A stretch of 37,374 nucleotides of DNA from a virus. The notes beneath the pieces are model-generated. The model ran no database searches and had not been told where the DNA came from. It saw only the letters and a list, made by a program, of their open reading frames with translations. Both the position numbers and the translations under genes were made by a program. The stretch lies in the IMG/VR virus record IMGVR_UViG_3300023296_000998, positions 1 to 37,374 of that record, one strand, 5' to 3'. Of the stretch, positions 1,718 to 37,329 are shown piece by piece (position 1 is the first letter of the stretch; each line of letters opens with the position of its first letter).

Positions 1718-1753
1718 TTTATTTACTCTCCTTTCCTTTCCCTTTAAAATTTA

Positions 1754-1840
1754 GAAGCCCCCTAAACGCTCCTTGATGAGAGAGGCGGTTATTAGGGGGC
1801 TTCATGCTTCCAAATAAAAAAACCGCCTTTCTCTCATCAA
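1754..1840 (-). promoter_or_regulatory. Leftward leader with interleaved hairpins (attenuator-like)
   Basis: Reading leftward, the transcript starts near 1838 and holds four arms in the order b, a, b', a'. Arm b (1840-1821) pairs with b' (1790-1773) over 18 bp with a 2-nt bulge. Arm a (1803-1792, GAAGCCCCCTAA) pairs with a' (1765-1754) over 12 perfect bp. The pairs interleave, and only 7 nt link b' to a', so both full stems are unlikely to coexist. This suggests a two-state RNA switch. The a:a' stem is followed by TAAATTTTAAA, a poor U-tract, so a weak terminator or a translation-affecting fold is as likely as strict attenuation. Confidence 0.6.
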
Positions 1841-1844
1841 CAAT

Positions 1845-1873
1845 AGTATACCATACAATTTGCATTTTGTCAA
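1845..1873 (-). promoter_or_regulatory. Leftward sigma70 promoter P_L
   Basis: On the minus strand, TTGACA (1873-1868) is followed after exactly 17 bp by TATACT (1850-1845). Six bases further is G1838, the likely start site. The transcript would begin with the first arm of the structured leader. It drives the leftward small-gene operon. Confidence 0.85.
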
Positions 1874-2469: not shown

Positions 2470-2487
2470 GTGGTTTGACAAAACCAC
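2470..2487. promoter_or_regulatory. Perfect dyad over the P_R -35 box (operator candidate)
   Basis: GTGGTTT-GACA-AAACCAC is a perfect 7-bp inverted repeat with a 4-bp spacer, and it contains the TTGACA -35 element of the rightward promoter. A repressor bound here would block RNA polymerase. No matching dyad was found at the leftward promoter, and no repressor gene was recognised in the window. Confidence 0.55.
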
Positions 2488-2503
2488 AAAAATACAGTAT
2501 AGT
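2475..2503 (+). promoter_or_regulatory. Rightward sigma70 promoter P_R
   Basis: TTGACA (2475-2480), a 17-bp spacer, then TATAGT (2498-2503). The predicted start is A2510, the first base of the AAGCTTAGAG arm of the following leader. It is the only strong rightward promoter seen upstream of the small terminase gene. Confidence 0.8.
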
Positions 2504-2509
2504 ATTTTC

Positions 2510-2578
2510 AAGCTTAGAGACAATATAATTTTTGTAGCCCCGTCAGTTTCCTCTAAGCTTCTGACGGGGTTTTCTTTT
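2510..2578 (+). ncRNA. Rightward leader or about 69-nt small RNA with 5'-end/terminator-loop pairing
   Basis: The first ten transcribed bases, AAGCTTAGAG (2510-2519), are perfectly complementary to CTCTAAGCTT (2551-2560), which is the 3' part of the terminator-hairpin loop. The terminator stem pairs 2538-2546 with 2561-2569. The two helices interleave, with no nucleotides between the loop arm and the 3' terminator arm, so the full helices should exclude each other. This may be an attenuated early leader in which the 5' end acts as antiterminator, or a short stable RNA ended by the terminator. The layout mirrors the leftward leader. Confidence 0.6.
2536..2578 (+). terminator. Intrinsic terminator just after P_R
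   Basis: CCCCGTCAG (2538-2546) and CTGACGGGG (2561-2569) form a perfect 9-bp GC-rich stem, extendable by a G-U and an A-U pair, followed by TTTTCTTTT. It is placed about 60 nt after the predicted transcript start. Confidence 0.85.
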
Positions 2579-2838: not shown

Positions 2839-3384
2839 TTGCTATTAGTAAAGAAATCAGCTAAATTATATATAGTGAAAAAAAAGAAAATAAAAAAACC
2901 AATAGTTACTAAAAAAAGCCAATCTCGGAAATTAAATGGAAAGCAAACGCTTTTTGCTCAATTCTACGACGGAGACGCTAAGAAGGCAGCAATAAAAGCT
3001 GGTTATAAAAAAACCGATGCTGCTGCTAGAGGTTGTCGTCTTCTGAAGAAACCAGCAGTAATTAAATTAATAAGATCCCGGCAAACCGCGGTTAAAGAAA
3101 TAACAAATAGATTATTAAAAGCTAGAGCAACGTCTGAAGTTAAAAAAATAATGACACGTAACGGTAGGATGCAGTTCTTATCAGATATGGCGCAAGATAT
3201 TAGTTTAGAACCACGGGACCGGATAAAATCAGTAGAAGTCCTTGGGCGTATGTGTGGAGACTTCCTCGGTAAAGACGATACACTCTTGACACGAACAACA
3301 GTTTATAATATACTGGTTGAAGCAAGACAACAACGTGGCCTACCAATAAAAGGACAGAAAGTTATAGACGTAGAGGGAGAGTAA
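2839..3384 (+). CDS. terS: Terminase small subunit (DNA-binding packaging protein)
   Basis: A 181-residue protein. After a basic leader (about residues 1-35) comes the typical terminase_2-like helix-turn-helix: a KQTLFAQFY helix, then KKAAIKAGYKKTDAAARGCRLLKKPAV, quoted here as KAAIKAGYKKTDAAARG (residues about 49-65), then a helical oligomerisation core. TerS recognises the packaging site and regulates the large subunit encoded at 8929. The start is uncertain. The open frame begins at TTG 2839 with AAGGG too close, GTG 2875 lacks a clear ribosome site, and ATT codons near 2821 follow an AGAGAGG. The conserved domain lies downstream of all these choices. Confidence 0.8.
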   Translation: MLLVKKSAKLYIVKKKKIKKPIVTKKSQSRKLNGKQTLFAQFYDGDAKKAAIKAGYKKTDAAARGCRLLKKPAVIKLIRSRQTAVKEITNRLLKARATSEVKKIMTRNGRMQFLSDMAQDISLEPRDRIKSVEVLGRMCGDFLGKDDTLLTRTTVYNILVEARQQRGLPIKGQKVIDVEGE

Positions 3385-7223: not shown

Positions 7224-7457
7224 ATGGATATCAAGGATCTTAAACTCGGAACTAATGTAATAATCATTCCCGGAAATAAAGTAAACATAAATATTTCAAA
7301 GATAGGGTCTGATTATATTAATGGATATCTCGAAGGACATCCTATTTCCGCTGGGATTCGAATTTCAAAAGATACAGTAAAAGAATGGATGAAACCAAAG
7401 GAGACTATAAATGAGGGAAATAACAAACGTAAATCAAATAGTACCAGCAAATCATAA
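7224..7457 (+). CDS. Hypothetical protein, likely leaderless, upstream of groES-like gene
   Basis: A 77-residue beta-rich unknown (residues 1-60: VNINISKIG, YINGYLEG), with a Lys/Ser-rich tail that overlaps the groES-like gene by 47 nt. No Shine-Dalgarno precedes ATG. The promoter at 7188-7217 predicts transcription starting at the A of ATG. Confidence 0.6.
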   Translation: MDIKDLKLGTNVIIIPGNKVNINISKIGSDYINGYLEGHPISAGIRISKDTVKEWMKPKETINEGNNKRKSNSTSKS

Positions 7458-7722
7458 AATCTTAATTAAAGTTGATGCGGATATTGAAAAGAAAGGATCT
7501 GTATATATCCCAAAGACCGAAGATCAAAAAAAGGAAATCTGGGCCGGTGAAGTTATATGTATAAGTCCCGGATGTGATTTGGCTGACGCTTGCTGTGAGA
7601 AGCTTAAGCCCGGCGTTATAATTATCACAGACTGTAATTATTTTTTATGCGCTCAATTTATAATAGGTAAAGATACTTATGCTCTTATCGATGAGGGAGA
7701 GATTGTTTGTATTCTTAAATAA
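7411..7722 (+). CDS. groES: GroES-like co-chaperonin
   Basis: A 103-residue protein matching the Cpn10 layout: HKILIKVDADIEKKGSVYIP (residues 15-34) as the first strand and mobile loop, WAGEVICISPG as the glycine-rich strand, KPGVIIITDC, then DTYALIDEGEIVCILK, the typical C-terminal end. The mobile loop has VYI where bacterial GroES has IVL. Cpn10 caps the GroEL chamber, and phage versions such as T4 gp31 enlarge it for capsid folding. Its likely partner is the phage GroEL at 11520, 3.8 kb away. AAAGGAG ribosome site. Cysteines are unusually many (six). Confidence 0.8.
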   Translation: MREITNVNQIVPANHKILIKVDADIEKKGSVYIPKTEDQKKEIWAGEVICISPGCDLADACCEKLKPGVIIITDCNYFLCAQFIIGKDTYALIDEGEIVCILK

Positions 7723-11519: not shown

Positions 11520-13136
11520 ATGATAAAGCAAATAGCGTATTCAGAAGAAGGAAGACAGCATCTTAAAGCCGGAGTCGATAAATTGGCAAATGCTGTTAAA
11601 GTAACATTAGGACCTAAAGGCAAAACAGTTATTCTCAGTAGACAGTACGGTTCTCCTACAATTATCGATGACGGCGTAACAATAGCCAGGGAAATCGAAC
11701 TTAAAGATCCATATGAAAATATGGGAGCTCAACTTGTACGGGAAGCTGCCTCTAAAACAAATGACATAGCTGGTGACGGTACTACTACGGCCACTATTCT
11801 CACACAGGCTATCTACGCAGAAGGACTCAAAAATATCACAGCAGGCGCGAATCCCACGCACTTAAAAAAAGGAATAGATTATGCTGTTAAAGAAATAGTC
11901 AAAGAATTAAAGTGTATGGCTAAGCCAGTAGATAACAGCGAATTAAAAGCCCAAATAGCTACAATATCTTCTAATGATCCCCATATTGGTAAATTAATCG
12001 CTGATGCTATGGAAAAAATCGGACCGGAAGGCGTTATAACTGTTGAGGAAGGTAAAACTGCTGAAACTGAATTAGAAATTGTTGAAGGTATGCAATTCGC
12101 AAGAGGTTATTTATCTCCTTATTTCGCAACAAACCCCGAAAAAATGGAGTGTGTATTAAAAGATTGCTATGTTTTAATATCTGATAAAGTTATTTCTTCA
12201 ATAGAGGATATTCTTCCTATCCTTCAAAAAATTTCAGCTGAGCAAAAAAGTTTACTCGTAATTGCTGAGGATATTACAGGACAGGCACTTGCTACTCTTG
12301 TTATAAATAAACTTCGCCAGCAAATACAATGTTGCGCTATTAAAGCTCCTGGGTATGGTGATAGAAGAAAAGAAACTCTCGAAGATATTGCAGCTCTTAC
12401 CGGGGCCGAAGTTATAACAAAAGATAAAGGTATGGATGTCAAAGACGTTCAGATCGACCAACTTGGTTTAGCTGATAGCGTTACTATATCTAAAGATAAT
12501 TCAACTATAGTTTCTTCTACAGGGGATAAAGAATTAATTAAAAAAAGAATTAGTCAAATTAAAACACAAATTAGCGATTCTACTTCCGATTATGATATTG
12601 AAAAATTCCAAGAAAGACTTGCTAAACTCTCGGGCGGAGTCGCTGTAATAAAAGTAGGCGCGGCAACAGAAACCGAAATGAAAGCAAAAAAATCAAAAGT
12701 TGAGGATGCAAGAAATGCTACTATTGCTGCTGAGAAAGAAGGTATAGTTCAAGGTGGCGGTGTTGCTTTAATCCGTGCTGCATATGTTCTTGATGATTTA
12801 AAAGCGTGTATTACTCCTGATGAACAAACTGGCGTCAACATTGTAAGAAATGCTGTGTTTGCTCCACTTCGTATAATCGCTGAAAATGCCGGTCAAGATG
12901 GCTCTATCGTAATTAATGAAGTAAGGAATTCTGTAATTAATACTGGGTTTAACGCCGATAATAATACGTATGTAGATGTTTTTGAAGCAGGTATCATAGA
13001 TCCTGTAAAAGTAACAAGGATAGCTCTTGAAAACGCCGCATCCATCGCAGGAACTCTTCTTACAACTGAAGCTCTTGTCGTAGATATACCAGTAAAACAA
13101 GAGTCTATCCCTGAAGGGTCTGGAGGTAACTATTAA
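11520..13136 (+). CDS. groEL: GroEL-like chaperonin (phage-encoded, full length)
   Basis: 538 residues, against 548 in E. coli GroEL, with all three domains. The ATP site is VTLGPKGKTVIL (28-39), DDGVTIA with D51, GDGTTTA (85-91), and the catalytic Asp of VEDA (D396). Apical substrate-binding aromatics are kept (GYLSPYF, 196-202), as is GGGVALIRA (412-420). The C-terminal GGM repeat is absent; it ends GSGGNY. Ribosome site GGAGGGAGC. Probably works with the GroES-like protein at 7411 on capsid or tail substrates. The only gene between it and the 13171 terminator is itself, so it closes its operon. Confidence 0.95.
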   Translation: MIKQIAYSEEGRQHLKAGVDKLANAVKVTLGPKGKTVILSRQYGSPTIIDDGVTIAREIELKDPYENMGAQLVREAASKTNDIAGDGTTTATILTQAIYAEGLKNITAGANPTHLKKGIDYAVKEIVKELKCMAKPVDNSELKAQIATISSNDPHIGKLIADAMEKIGPEGVITVEEGKTAETELEIVEGMQFARGYLSPYFATNPEKMECVLKDCYVLISDKVISSIEDILPILQKISAEQKSLLVIAEDITGQALATLVINKLRQQIQCCAIKAPGYGDRRKETLEDIAALTGAEVITKDKGMDVKDVQIDQLGLADSVTISKDNSTIVSSTGDKELIKKRISQIKTQISDSTSDYDIEKFQERLAKLSGGVAVIKVGAATETEMKAKKSKVEDARNATIAAEKEGIVQGGGVALIRAAYVLDDLKACITPDEQTGVNIVRNAVFAPLRIIAENAGQDGSIVINEVRNSVINTGFNADNNTYVDVFEAGIIDPVKVTRIALENAASIAGTLLTTEALVVDIPVKQESIPEGSGGNY

Positions 13137-32110: not shown

Positions 32111-33878
32111 TTTACTTATACTCTTTTTGAGTGTAAATTGTTTTGCGCAAACAAGGAATATAGTCCCAAGGGGAACCTCAGAGGGCTATATAGGGTTATC
32201 CACAAGAACATGGGCCGGAATGTATGCTGATGGCTTTGTAGGGCCATTGATAGGTAATGTCACAGGCGATTTAACAGGCAATGCTGACACAGCGACAAGC
32301 GTACCTGCTTCTGGTGTAGACTTATCTACAGTTACAACTGCTCTCTCTACAAAGGTGGATTTAACAGAAACCTCGTCGGTAACTTTGCAAAGTAATTTAG
32401 GCGTAGGTGGTACTTTAGATGTTACAGGAAACATAAATACTGCTGAATATTATCAGATAGATGGTAGCACTATGGTAGCAATATTGCCTGGAACAAATAG
32501 TATAGCCTATGGCGTAGGTGCTGGAAGTAGTAATATAACGGGTGGAGATTATAATACTTTTATTGGCAATTATGCGGGACAAGCTAACTCCACGGGGGAT
32601 AATAACTCTTTCCTGGGCTATTATGCGGGCTACTCCAACACCACGGGGGGTAATAACTCTTTCGTGGGGTTTCAGGCGGGCTACAAGAACACCACGGGGG
32701 CGAATAACTCTTTCCTGGGCTATTATGCGGGCTACTCCAACACCGCGGGGGCGAATAACTCTTTCCTGGGCTCTTATGCGGGCCTAGCCAACACCACGGG
32801 GGCGAATAACTCTTTCGTGGGCTATAAGGCGGGCTACTATAACACCACGGGGGCGGGTAACTCTTTCGTGGGTGGTAATGCGGGCCAAGCCAACACCACG
32901 GGGGCGAATAACTCTTTCGTGGGGTTTCAGGCGGGCTACAAGAACACCACGGGGGGTAATAACTCTTTCGTGGGGTTTCAGGCGGGCTACAAGAACACCA
33001 CGGGGGCTCAGAACTCTTTCCTGGGCTATGCTGCGGGCTATTACAACATCACGGGGGCTCAGAACTCTTTCCTTGGTTACAGGGCTGGTGCTTCAAACGG
33101 GACGGGTGATAATAATCTTCTTCTAGGCTGGCAAGCCGGTGATTCAATTACTTCGGGTTCCGATAATATAATAATCGGCTATGACGAAGATACTCCCTCT
33201 GCTACTACTTCAAACTATTTGAATATTGGTGGCTTGATAGTGGGAGATATGGCGACTTCAAGTGCTACTGTTTTGGGTGAATTACACGCTACTGAATATT
33301 ACGGAGATGGCTCAAACTTAACAAATGTAGATGTAGATGTAGATGTAGATGAAAGTGCAAAATACAACTGGACGGATACGCACACATTTAACAGCACTAC
33401 CACATTTAAAGATGTGATAGAAACAACTGGGAAAGTTGGAATATCAACAGGAACGACACCCTCATTTTTAAGTGTATATTCTGACGGAAACTATGGGATA
33501 AGGGTAACAAATGCTTATGATGGGGCTTATGTTGAAAGGACAGGAAGAATAACAAGGGCATACGGTGGCGGTCTTTTATTTGATAACGGAACAATAGGTG
33601 ATTTAATTTATTTTCGTGTTAGCAATGCTGGTTTAGTTGATACTGTTGCTATGACAATAGAGAGTGATGGGGATATAATTATCGGGGAGGACTTAGCGGT
33701 AAGCGGTAGCTTTAAACCATATCAAAGAACCGACGCACAACTTGATGCTTTAGAACCGTCAGAGGCAGGTTTATTATTTATGTGTACAGATTGTGCTATT
33801 CCTTATTCTGTTTGTGTTTCAACTGGCACAGGGGCAGGGGCATTAGTTTTAATGAATACTGTGAATAACTGCGAATAA
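32082..33878 (+). CDS. Tail fibre-like protein with 51-bp repeat array and signal peptide
   Basis: A 598-residue protein starting inside the end of the upstream gene after GAGGTGATAA. Signal peptide with cleavage at CFA|QT (residue 22). Then the fibre-type segment GYIGLSTRTWAGMYADGFVG, then about 12 repeats of 17 residues (NNSFxGxxAGxxNTTG, residues 156-359), of the YadA-head/left-handed beta-roll kind seen in trimeric adhesins. The C-terminus has a fibre cap with CTDC and VCVSTGTGAG. Likely receptor-binding. Confidence 0.75.
   Translation: MKIYNLSLISLLILFLSVNCFAQTRNIVPRGTSEGYIGLSTRTWAGMYADGFVGPLIGNVTGDLTGNADTATSVPASGVDLSTVTTALSTKVDLTETSSVTLQSNLGVGGTLDVTGNINTAEYYQIDGSTMVAILPGTNSIAYGVGAGSSNITGGDYNTFIGNYAGQANSTGDNNSFLGYYAGYSNTTGGNNSFVGFQAGYKNTTGANNSFLGYYAGYSNTAGANNSFLGSYAGLANTTGANNSFVGYKAGYYNTTGAGNSFVGGNAGQANTTGANNSFVGFQAGYKNTTGGNNSFVGFQAGYKNTTGAQNSFLGYAAGYYNITGAQNSFLGYRAGASNGTGDNNLLLGWQAGDSITSGSDNIIIGYDEDTPSATTSNYLNIGGLIVGDMATSSATVLGELHATEYYGDGSNLTNVDVDVDVDESAKYNWTDTHTFNSTTTFKDVIETTGKVGISTGTTPSFLSVYSDGNYGIRVTNAYDGAYVERTGRITRAYGGGLLFDNGTIGDLIYFRVSNAGLVDTVAMTIESDGDIIIGEDLAVSGSFKPYQRTDAQLDALEPSEAGLLFMCTDCAIPYSVCVSTGTGAGALVLMNTVNNCE
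32547..33158 (+). repeat. Array of about 12 tandem 51-bp units in fibre gene
   Basis: Units of 17 codons begin at 32547 and recur every 51 bp to 33158; a degenerate 13th follows. Central units are nearly identical in DNA, including third positions (AACACCACGGGGGCGAATAAC). A counted unit has 27 G+C of 51, much richer than the surrounding AT-rich genome. This points to recent expansion, possibly after acquisition from another source. Confidence 0.9.
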
Positions 33879-36731: not shown

Positions 36732-36935
36732 TTATTTCTTTTTATATTTAATCATAGAAACAAATTTTGTATTAAATTGAAGTATAGTTCCATCGTTACA
36801 AATTTGTTCAATCCAAGAATAGGTTTGATAGTCAGACGGAGATGCCATAAGCCTAAATTTTCCGTCGCATGAACCATGCATATCCATATCTCCCTCAATT
36901 TGAACTTCTATGCTTTCAATTTCCATTTCCCTCAT
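36732..36935 (-). CDS. Hypothetical small acidic protein (67 aa)
   Basis: A 67-residue unknown. The acidic first half (EMEIESIEVQIEGDMDMH) is followed by beta-like segments. It overlaps the end of the upstream leftward nuclease gene and has no independent ribosome site for ATG 36935, so translation is probably coupled. Last leftward gene before the terminator. Confidence 0.6.
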   Translation of the reverse strand: MREMEIESIEVQIEGDMDMHGSCDGKFRLMASPSDYQTYSWIEQICNDGTILQFNTKFVSMIKYKKK

Positions 36936-37329
36936 ATTTTCTACCGTACGTAATAATGTCTCCGGATTCTTCTTTATTTAAAGCCGTAAAAGCCTTAATC
37001 ATGTCCCGGAGATCATATAAAGTATACTGCGCCGGTGTATTCGAAAGTAAAACCAATTCATCATAAAGCTTTTGTCCGTGTTCTTTAATAAACCATGCTA
37101 AAAATGGTTTCTTATCATCTTCAAAGTCCGTATTGCACTTATTACAGGAACCTACTAAAAAAGCTAAATTCCAGCGAGTCCCGCGCTTGGCTCTTCCGGC
37201 AAAGTGAAAACAGTCTGTAATATCAGCGCCGCAGAAAGCACAACCGCCGTATTTATCAAAGGTTAATTTCTTAACATACATTGAAACTTGCGCGTCTAAG
37301 CGCTTTTCGAGATTTCCGCGTACGCTCAT
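36916..37329 (-). CDS. NinG-like HNH/zinc nuclease
   Basis: A 137-residue protein with AGAGGG upstream of ATG. The layout C30-x2-C33, DCFHF (H42), TRWN (52-54) and C62-x2-C65-N66 matches the zinc-stabilised His-Asn nuclease core of lambda NinG (Rap-type recombination proteins) and of HNH enzymes. Such proteins resolve or cut branched DNA, or nick DNA during recombination and packaging. It is leftward, and no promoter lies within the window for it, fitting continuation from the left-end operon if the ends join. Confidence 0.7.
   Translation of the reverse strand: MSVRGNLEKRLDAQVSMYVKKLTFDKYGGCAFCGADITDCFHFAGRAKRGTRWNLAFLVGSCNKCNTDFEDDKKPFLAWFIKEHGQKLYDELVLLSNTPAQYTLYDLRDMIKAFTALNKEESGDIITYGRKYEGNGN

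What the first reader, a model, noticed from the sequence alone, without database searches (positions are those of the whole stretch)
2470..2578. Rightward leader: 5' end of the transcript pairs with the terminator loop
A clean promoter is followed by an intrinsic terminator only about 60 nt from the predicted start. The first ten transcribed bases are perfectly complementary to the last ten bases of the terminator loop. With no bases between the loop arm and the closing stem arm, the two full helices should exclude each other, so the nascent 5' end could act as an antiterminator. The alternative is a 69-nt small RNA. Positional analogy exists to HK022 put RNAs next to early promoters, but the fold differs.
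Basis: partly seen in the sequence, partly recalled or inferred. Interest (0 to 1): 0.75.

Follow-up and report, generated by a model that had tools for sequence, protein, structure and literature searches.

The report
Self-pairing leader gating phage late genes
Just after the promoter for its packaging and structural genes, this phage has a stop signal whose loop can be captured by the very start of the same RNA, so the RNA may decide for itself whether transcription stops; a second leader with the same layout sits at the phage's opposite, early promoter.

Summary
A strong sigma-70-type promoter (2475-2503) is followed by an intrinsic-terminator-like hairpin (2536-2571, U-rich to 2578). The first ten predicted RNA bases (2510-2519) pair perfectly with the last ten loop bases (2551-2560). 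Composition-matched random sequence gives this at about 8e-5, and 61 terminator-like sites in 376 kb of other phage DNA gave none with 9 or more paired bases. Three distinct homologous leaders keep every pair of both helices; both substitutions are wobble-preserving, while the 16-nt linker drifts. There is no two-sided covariation in this leader. The divergent leftward (early) promoter carries the same a-b-a'-b' layout with different sequence and one compensatory change, though its U-tract is weak. The rightward transcript begins the late operon (terS first), so the positional analogue is lambda pR'-tR', not HK022's early put sites. Nascent-chain energies put the 5'-arm/loop helix first (-11.9 kcal/mol with RNAP near 2574, when no terminator pairing is yet free) and the terminator later but more stable (-20.4). 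Best reading: a promoter-proximal attenuator in which the RNA's 5' end is a kinetic, topological antiterminator. Nothing here shows the start site, termination or read-through experimentally. New variant of a known kind.

The parts
2475..2503 (+). Rightward promoter: TTGACA, 17-nt spacer, TATAGT
   Evidence: 11 of 12 consensus matches; both hexamers unchanged in L003/L004, -10 region unchanged in L012
2471..2488 (+). Palindrome GTGGTTTGACAAAACCAC over the -35 element (possible operator); replaced by TTTGACAAAGTCAAA in L003/L004
   Evidence: Direct reading
2510..2519 (+). 5' arm (a), predicted +1 to +10 of the transcript: AAGCUUAGAG
   Evidence: AGGCUUAGAG in L003/L004 keeps pairing through G.U
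2520..2535 (+). 16-nt linker, length fixed but sequence variable (5 of 16 columns); contains TATAAT (2524-2529), a possible sigma-dependent pause element
   Evidence: Fisher p = 0.014 against 2 variable of 42 helix columns
2536..2546 (+). Terminator stem, 5' half (b)
   Evidence: fold; all pairs kept in relatives
2551..2560 (+). Loop arm (a'), CUCUAAGCUU, complementary to the 5' arm and directly abutting b'
   Evidence: identical in all relatives
2561..2571 (+). Terminator stem, 3' half (b')
2572..2578 (+). U-rich tail UUCUUUU; predicted 3' end of a 69-nt terminated RNA
   Evidence: conserved
2839..3384 (+). Terminase small subunit, first gene downstream (late operon)
   Evidence: phrog_51 E 3.9e-16, Pfam PF03592 E 6e-10
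1845..1873 (-). Leftward promoter TTGACA-17-TATACT of the early operon
   Evidence: early genes O-like, RusA and NinG in L042 and window 36916-37329
1821..1840 (-). Leftward leader 5' arm (a) UUGAUGAGAGAAAGGCGGUU
1791..1802 (-). Leftward stem 5' half (b) GAAGCCCCCUAA
   Evidence: one compensatory U-A to C-G and one G-C to G.U change against L003/L004
1773..1790 (-). Leftward loop arm (a') AACCGCCUCUCUCAUCAA, identical in relatives
1753..1764 (-). Leftward stem 3' half (b') UUAGGGGGCUUC, followed by a weak U-tract (UAAAUUUU)

Best explanation
A promoter-proximal attenuator gates the phage's late operon. RNAP starts at about 2510 and makes the 5' arm first. When the loop arm a' emerges (RNAP about 2569-2574) the 5' arm captures it before any of b' is free, closing b inside a 31-nt loop. 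Because a' abuts b' with no linker, the full a:a' helix topologically blocks the terminator hairpin, so RNAP tends to read through into terS and the late genes. If the 5' arm or a' is unavailable (trimmed, bound by a protein or RNA, or if RNAP pauses long enough for refolding), the more stable terminator forms and a 69-nt RNA is released. Shown here: the promoter match, arms, stem and their retention in relatives. Calculated: order of folding and energies. Inferred: start site, termination, read-through, and any regulator.
For: Perfect 10-bp complementarity starting at the predicted +1, well above chance. All 21 pairs of both helices are kept in three distinct leaders while the linker between them varies. 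a:a' is complete at -11.9 kcal/mol when the free RNA ends at 2560 (RNAP about 2574), whereas the terminator overtakes it only at free end 2567; final terminator -20.4. The same a-b-a'-b' order recurs with unrelated sequence at the divergent leftward promoter, where a:a' is -30 before b' emerges, and its b:b' stem shows a compensatory change. The position before terS matches where phages such as lambda gate late transcription (PMC6606751).
Against: No start site, 3' end or read-through measurement. No two-sided covariation in the rightward leader; only three distinct sequences. The antiterminator does not compete for the stem bases themselves, so it acts only sterically, and a partial pseudoknot could let both form. 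At equilibrium the terminator wins by about 8.5 kcal/mol. The leftward counterpart has a poor U-tract, so it may not be a terminator. The exit-channel offset (14 nt) and the folding parameters (37 C) are assumptions; the host is unknown.
Confidence: 0.45

Rival explanations
1. Lambda-type late gate: an ordinary promoter-proximal terminator that a phage Q-like protein overrides; the 5'-arm/loop pairing only forms a pseudoknot that shapes or protects the short terminated RNA.
For: Position before the late operon. A perfect -10-like TATAAT lies at +15 to +20, as needed for sigma-dependent pausing where Q loads (PMC6606751), with TACAAT in L012. A NinG/Rap gene, a lambda nin-region type, ends the early operon.
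Against: No Q-like protein recognised by PHROGs or Pfam among the early proteins scanned. L003/L004 have TATAAA, a weaker element, and such motifs are common in AT-rich DNA. Does not explain the precise 10-nt pairing or its repetition at the leftward promoter.
Confidence: 0.25
2. Trans-acting leader RNA, P4-CI-like: the 69-nt terminated RNA accumulates and its loop pairs with the 5' arm of new transcripts, taking away their antiterminator and enforcing termination (autogenous feedback or superinfection immunity).
For: P4 CI RNA causes termination of its own operon by pairing with seqA upstream and seqC downstream (PMC4825925). Intermolecular a + a' duplex is -12.7 kcal/mol. Free 14-nt loop displays a' in the terminated RNA.
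Against: P4 t1 has a 3-nt loop and seqB lies outside it. No second target of 10 or more bases occurs downstream in the leader. The same RNA also carries a, so its net effect is ambiguous.
Confidence: 0.12
3. The arms are a DNA-level inverted repeat (operator or protein-binding half-sites about 41 bp apart), not an RNA helix.
For: AAGCTT is itself palindromic; the region lies just downstream of a promoter with another palindrome over the -35.
Against: The single change in the arms (A to G in L003/L004) breaks DNA symmetry but keeps RNA pairing. The second arm sits exactly in the terminator loop, and the leftward leader has the same RNA order with different sequence.
Confidence: 0.1
4. An HK022-put-like RNA that modifies RNAP for processive antitermination.
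For: Similar length (about 70 nt) and place after divergent promoters; putL is also just downstream of PL and has a -10-like sequence at +23 to +28 (PMC9378689).
Against: put RNA is two stem-loops; here there is one stem with a competing arm, no Rfam match, and the element itself ends in a terminator.
Confidence: 0.05
5. Chance complementarity in an ordinary terminator.
For: AT-rich sequence and one low-complexity 8-nt match elsewhere.
Against: Chance about 8e-5, conservation, recurrence at the second promoter.
Confidence: 0.03

Closest known systems
Lambda pR'-tR' late leader with Q antitermination
   Same: Promoter-proximal intrinsic terminator between the late promoter and the late genes; a -10-like element in the early transcribed region
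   Different: Lambda's tR' loop is not complementary to the 5' end of the RNA; no Q-like protein identified here; terminator at +69 rather than near +190
Satellite phage P4 CI RNA / seqA / t1 immunity system
   Same: Untranslated leader with complementary segments that control early termination; possible short self-targeting RNA
   Different: P4 seqB is not in the t1 loop (t1 loop is 3 nt); P4 has a third partner seqC; here the partner is the extreme 5' end and the operon is late, not replicative
HK022 putL / putR
   Same: About 70-nt leader RNA beside divergent promoters, possible RNA-only antitermination
   Different: Two-stem structure that binds RNAP and acts over kilobases; different fold and no terminator inside
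Classical transcription attenuators (for example trp, pyr and T-box leaders)
   Same: Mutually exclusive antiterminator and terminator in a leader
   Different: There the antiterminator sequesters half of the terminator stem; here it takes the loop and leaves the stem bases free, excluding it by topology

Membership tests
Transcription attenuator (terminator/antiterminator leader) | Intrinsic terminator between promoter and first gene | tested here: met
   terS starts about 300 nt downstream
Transcription attenuator (terminator/antiterminator leader) | Alternative earlier helix incompatible with the terminator | tested here: met
   for full helices; a partial pseudoknot is not excluded
Transcription attenuator (terminator/antiterminator leader) | Antiterminator pairs with bases of the terminator stem (usual design, not universal definition) | tested here: not met
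   a' lies wholly in the loop; hence filed as a variant
Transcription attenuator (terminator/antiterminator leader) | Measured change in read-through in response to a signal | not testable with these tools
   Needs in vitro transcription or RNA-seq
HK022 put RNA | Two adjacent stem-loops, about 70 nt | tested here: not met
   fold compared with PMC9378689
HK022 put RNA | Processive antitermination through RNAP beta' zinc-binding domain | not testable with these tools
   No host or assay
P4 CI / seqA | CI-type RNA complementary to target segments both upstream and downstream | tested here: not met
   Only the upstream partner found
P4 CI / seqA | Trans-acting antisense RNA promoting termination | not testable with these tools
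   Needs expression of the 69-nt RNA in trans
Lambda-type Q-dependent late leader | Late promoter followed by a terminator before late genes | tested here: met
Lambda-type Q-dependent late leader | -10-like sigma pause element in the initial transcribed region | tested here: inconclusive
   TATAAT at +15 to +20 in the window, TACAAT in L012, TATAAA in L003/L004
Lambda-type Q-dependent late leader | Q-family protein encoded by the phage | tested here: inconclusive
   None recognised by PHROGs or Pfam among the early proteins scanned; many early proteins have no family match

The most novel reading that the evidence does not exclude
The phage uses one RNA-only device twice: at both divergent promoters the nascent 5' end captures the loop of a promoter-proximal terminator and blocks it topologically, with different set points (strong read-through default on the early side, balanced on the late side), so the timing of early and late operons is set by RNA folding without an antiterminator protein.
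Probability: 0.17. Interest if true: 0.75.

Novelty: new variant of a known kind. Interest (0 to 1): 0.5.

Why it matters
If true, it would be an antiterminator that leaves the terminator stem untouched and works by threading, a mode that standard secondary-structure searches miss: the scan tool missed it because of the loop size, and Rfam has no match. It would give a protein-free way to gate phage late genes, and it is testable in a purified transcription reaction. The layout (5' arm equals the reverse complement of the terminator loop) is also simple to look for across phages.

Tried and rejected
Rfam, gathering and permissive thresholds: nothing credible. Blastn against annotated phages: no match. 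TerL and portal alignments against 84,980 bacterial and archaeal genomes: no relative, so no host or prophage. Distant terS relatives L016-L020 have no recognisable leader. L007 4949 on the - strand is an AT-rich match at the groEL terminator with no promoter, read as chance. A leader peptide in the leftward leader was considered and rejected because the frame is not kept between the window and L003/L004. An early-transcribed antisense partner for the rightward leader was sought and found no better than shuffles. A literature search for antitermination through the terminator loop returned nothing matching; the library holds open-access papers only.

Full report
Observation. The window is a 37,374-base virus record. 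At 2475-2503 lies TTGACA-17-TATAGT. Seven bases past the -10 element begins AAGCTTAGAG (2510-2519), repeated as its exact reverse complement CTCTAAGCTT at 2551-2560. That second arm is the 3' end of the 14-nt loop of an 11-pair stem, 2536-2546 with 2561-2571, followed by UUCUUUU. The 69-nt RNA folds to -20.4 kcal/mol with z -3.5. The coordinates and the claim of no intervening bases are correct.

Chance. Ten contiguous complementary bases between a 15-nt 5' end and a 14-nt loop occur in 7.7e-5 of random pairs with the local dinucleotide make-up. A scan for terminator-like sites whose loop pairs with upstream RNA found none in six Markov-shuffled windows. In 376 kb of unrelated phage DNA (including T4, lambda, HK022, 11b, sk1 and TP901-1) it found one 8-nt AT-only match without a promoter among 61 terminator-like sites. 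The window holds two hits that directly follow a promoter.

Context. The first rightward gene is the terminase small subunit (phrog_51, PF03592), followed by groES- and groEL-like genes (named from their sequence), a large terminase subunit (TerL), and portal- and tail-type proteins (named from position and sequence). The leftward genes, completed by a near-identical contig (L042), include replication O-like, RusA and NinG/Rap proteins. So the rightward unit is late and the leftward unit early. The analogue by position is lambda pR'-tR', whose terminator Q overrides (PMC6606751), rather than HK022 put, which lies after early promoters (PMC9378689).

Relatives. Homologous DNA was found in four other records: L002/L014 (identical leader), L003 and L004 (about 85% DNA identity, leader identical to each other) and L012. 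On the alignment all 21 pairs of the two helices are kept in the three distinct sequences. One A-U becomes G.U in a:a' and one C-G becomes U.G in b:b'. The 16-nt linker keeps its length but varies in 5 columns against 2 of 42 helix columns (Fisher p = 0.014). This is consistent with selection on both pairings but is not covariation: no pair changes on both sides, and the shuffle control is uninformative with three rows. The downstream 25 bases are also strongly conserved, so some of the conservation may have other causes.

The twin. The divergent leftward promoter (1873-1845, - strand) is followed by UUGAUGAGAGAAAGGCGGUU (1840-1821), whose complement AACCGCCUCUCUCAUCAA (1790-1773) lies inside the loop of GAAGCCCCCUAA (1802-1791) and UUAGGGGGCUUC (1764-1753). 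The order a-b-a'-b' is the same with unrelated sequence. Against L003/L004 the b:b' stem shows one compensatory U-A to C-G change and one wobble change, and a:a' is unchanged apart from a one-base insertion in its bulge. The U-tract is weak, so b:b' may not be a working terminator.

Folding order. With 14 nt of RNA held by the polymerase, a:a' in the rightward leader reaches -11.9 kcal/mol when RNAP is near 2574, while no b' base is free. The terminator overtakes it only when the free end reaches 2567 (RNAP about 2581) and ends 8.5 kcal/mol more stable. Hence a:a' is first and b:b' is final. In the leftward leader a:a' is at -30 before b' emerges and remains in the global minimum (-36.3, against -33.0 with b:b' forced). 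These are nested-structure energies at 37 C; the true outcome depends on pseudoknot sterics. By general H-type pseudoknot geometry, a full 10-bp a:a' with no third loop cannot coexist with the full stem, but about 5 bp could. That is an inference, not a calculation.

Mechanism. I take the leader to be an attenuator whose antiterminator is the 5' end of the RNA itself and which acts by occupying the loop. The default in a bare system would be substantial read-through; loss or occupation of the 5' arm would give termination and a 69-nt RNA. The main rival is a lambda-like Q gate in which the pairing merely shapes the short RNA. The TATAAT at +15 to +20 would suit Q loading, but no Q-like protein was recognised among the early proteins scanned. 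A P4-like trans action of the 69-nt RNA is possible: CI RNA works by pairing with seqA and seqC (PMC4825925). But P4's t1 has a 3-nt loop (its identity as t1 rests on my knowledge of the P4 leader) and no second target exists here.

Verdict. The structure is real and conserved, the mechanism plausible and unproven. I found no known family whose antiterminator captures only the terminator loop, within the open-access literature and tools at hand. I file it as a new variant of transcription attenuation.

Noticed in passing
1735-1840, - strand: Leftward early leader with the same a-b-a'-b' layout as the finding, different sequence, one compensatory change in relatives.
   Followed up: yes
2675-2701 and 2794-2816: Repeated hairpin GCCACTTTTA...GAGAGGC, conserved in L003, L004 and L012 just upstream of terS; possibly terminase (cos/pac) sites or an RNA motif.
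   Followed up: partly
2018-2085: GC-rich block GGATGTGGTAGTTCCGGCGGGGACTGCCGGTTCAAGAC... nearly identical in L003/L004 and in no unrelated viral contig; function unknown.
   Followed up: partly
2720-2745: Second small GC hairpin with a U-run downstream of the leader; different sequence but hairpin retained in L003, and a different inserted segment in L012 (about 230-400), which contains AAGCTTAG.
   Followed up: no
2471-2488 and 1967-1980: Palindromes over the rightward -35 and near a possible upstream leftward promoter; the first differs between the window and L003/L004, as if operator specificity had changed.
   Followed up: no
1-224 and 912-1135: Direct duplication (96% identical) carrying a copy of the same 63-aa gene.
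   Followed up: no
7411-7722 and 11520-13136: Phage-borne GroES-like and full-length GroEL-like genes inside the late operon.
   Followed up: no
32449-33213: Tandem 51-nt (17-aa) repeats in a tail-fibre-like protein.
   Followed up: no
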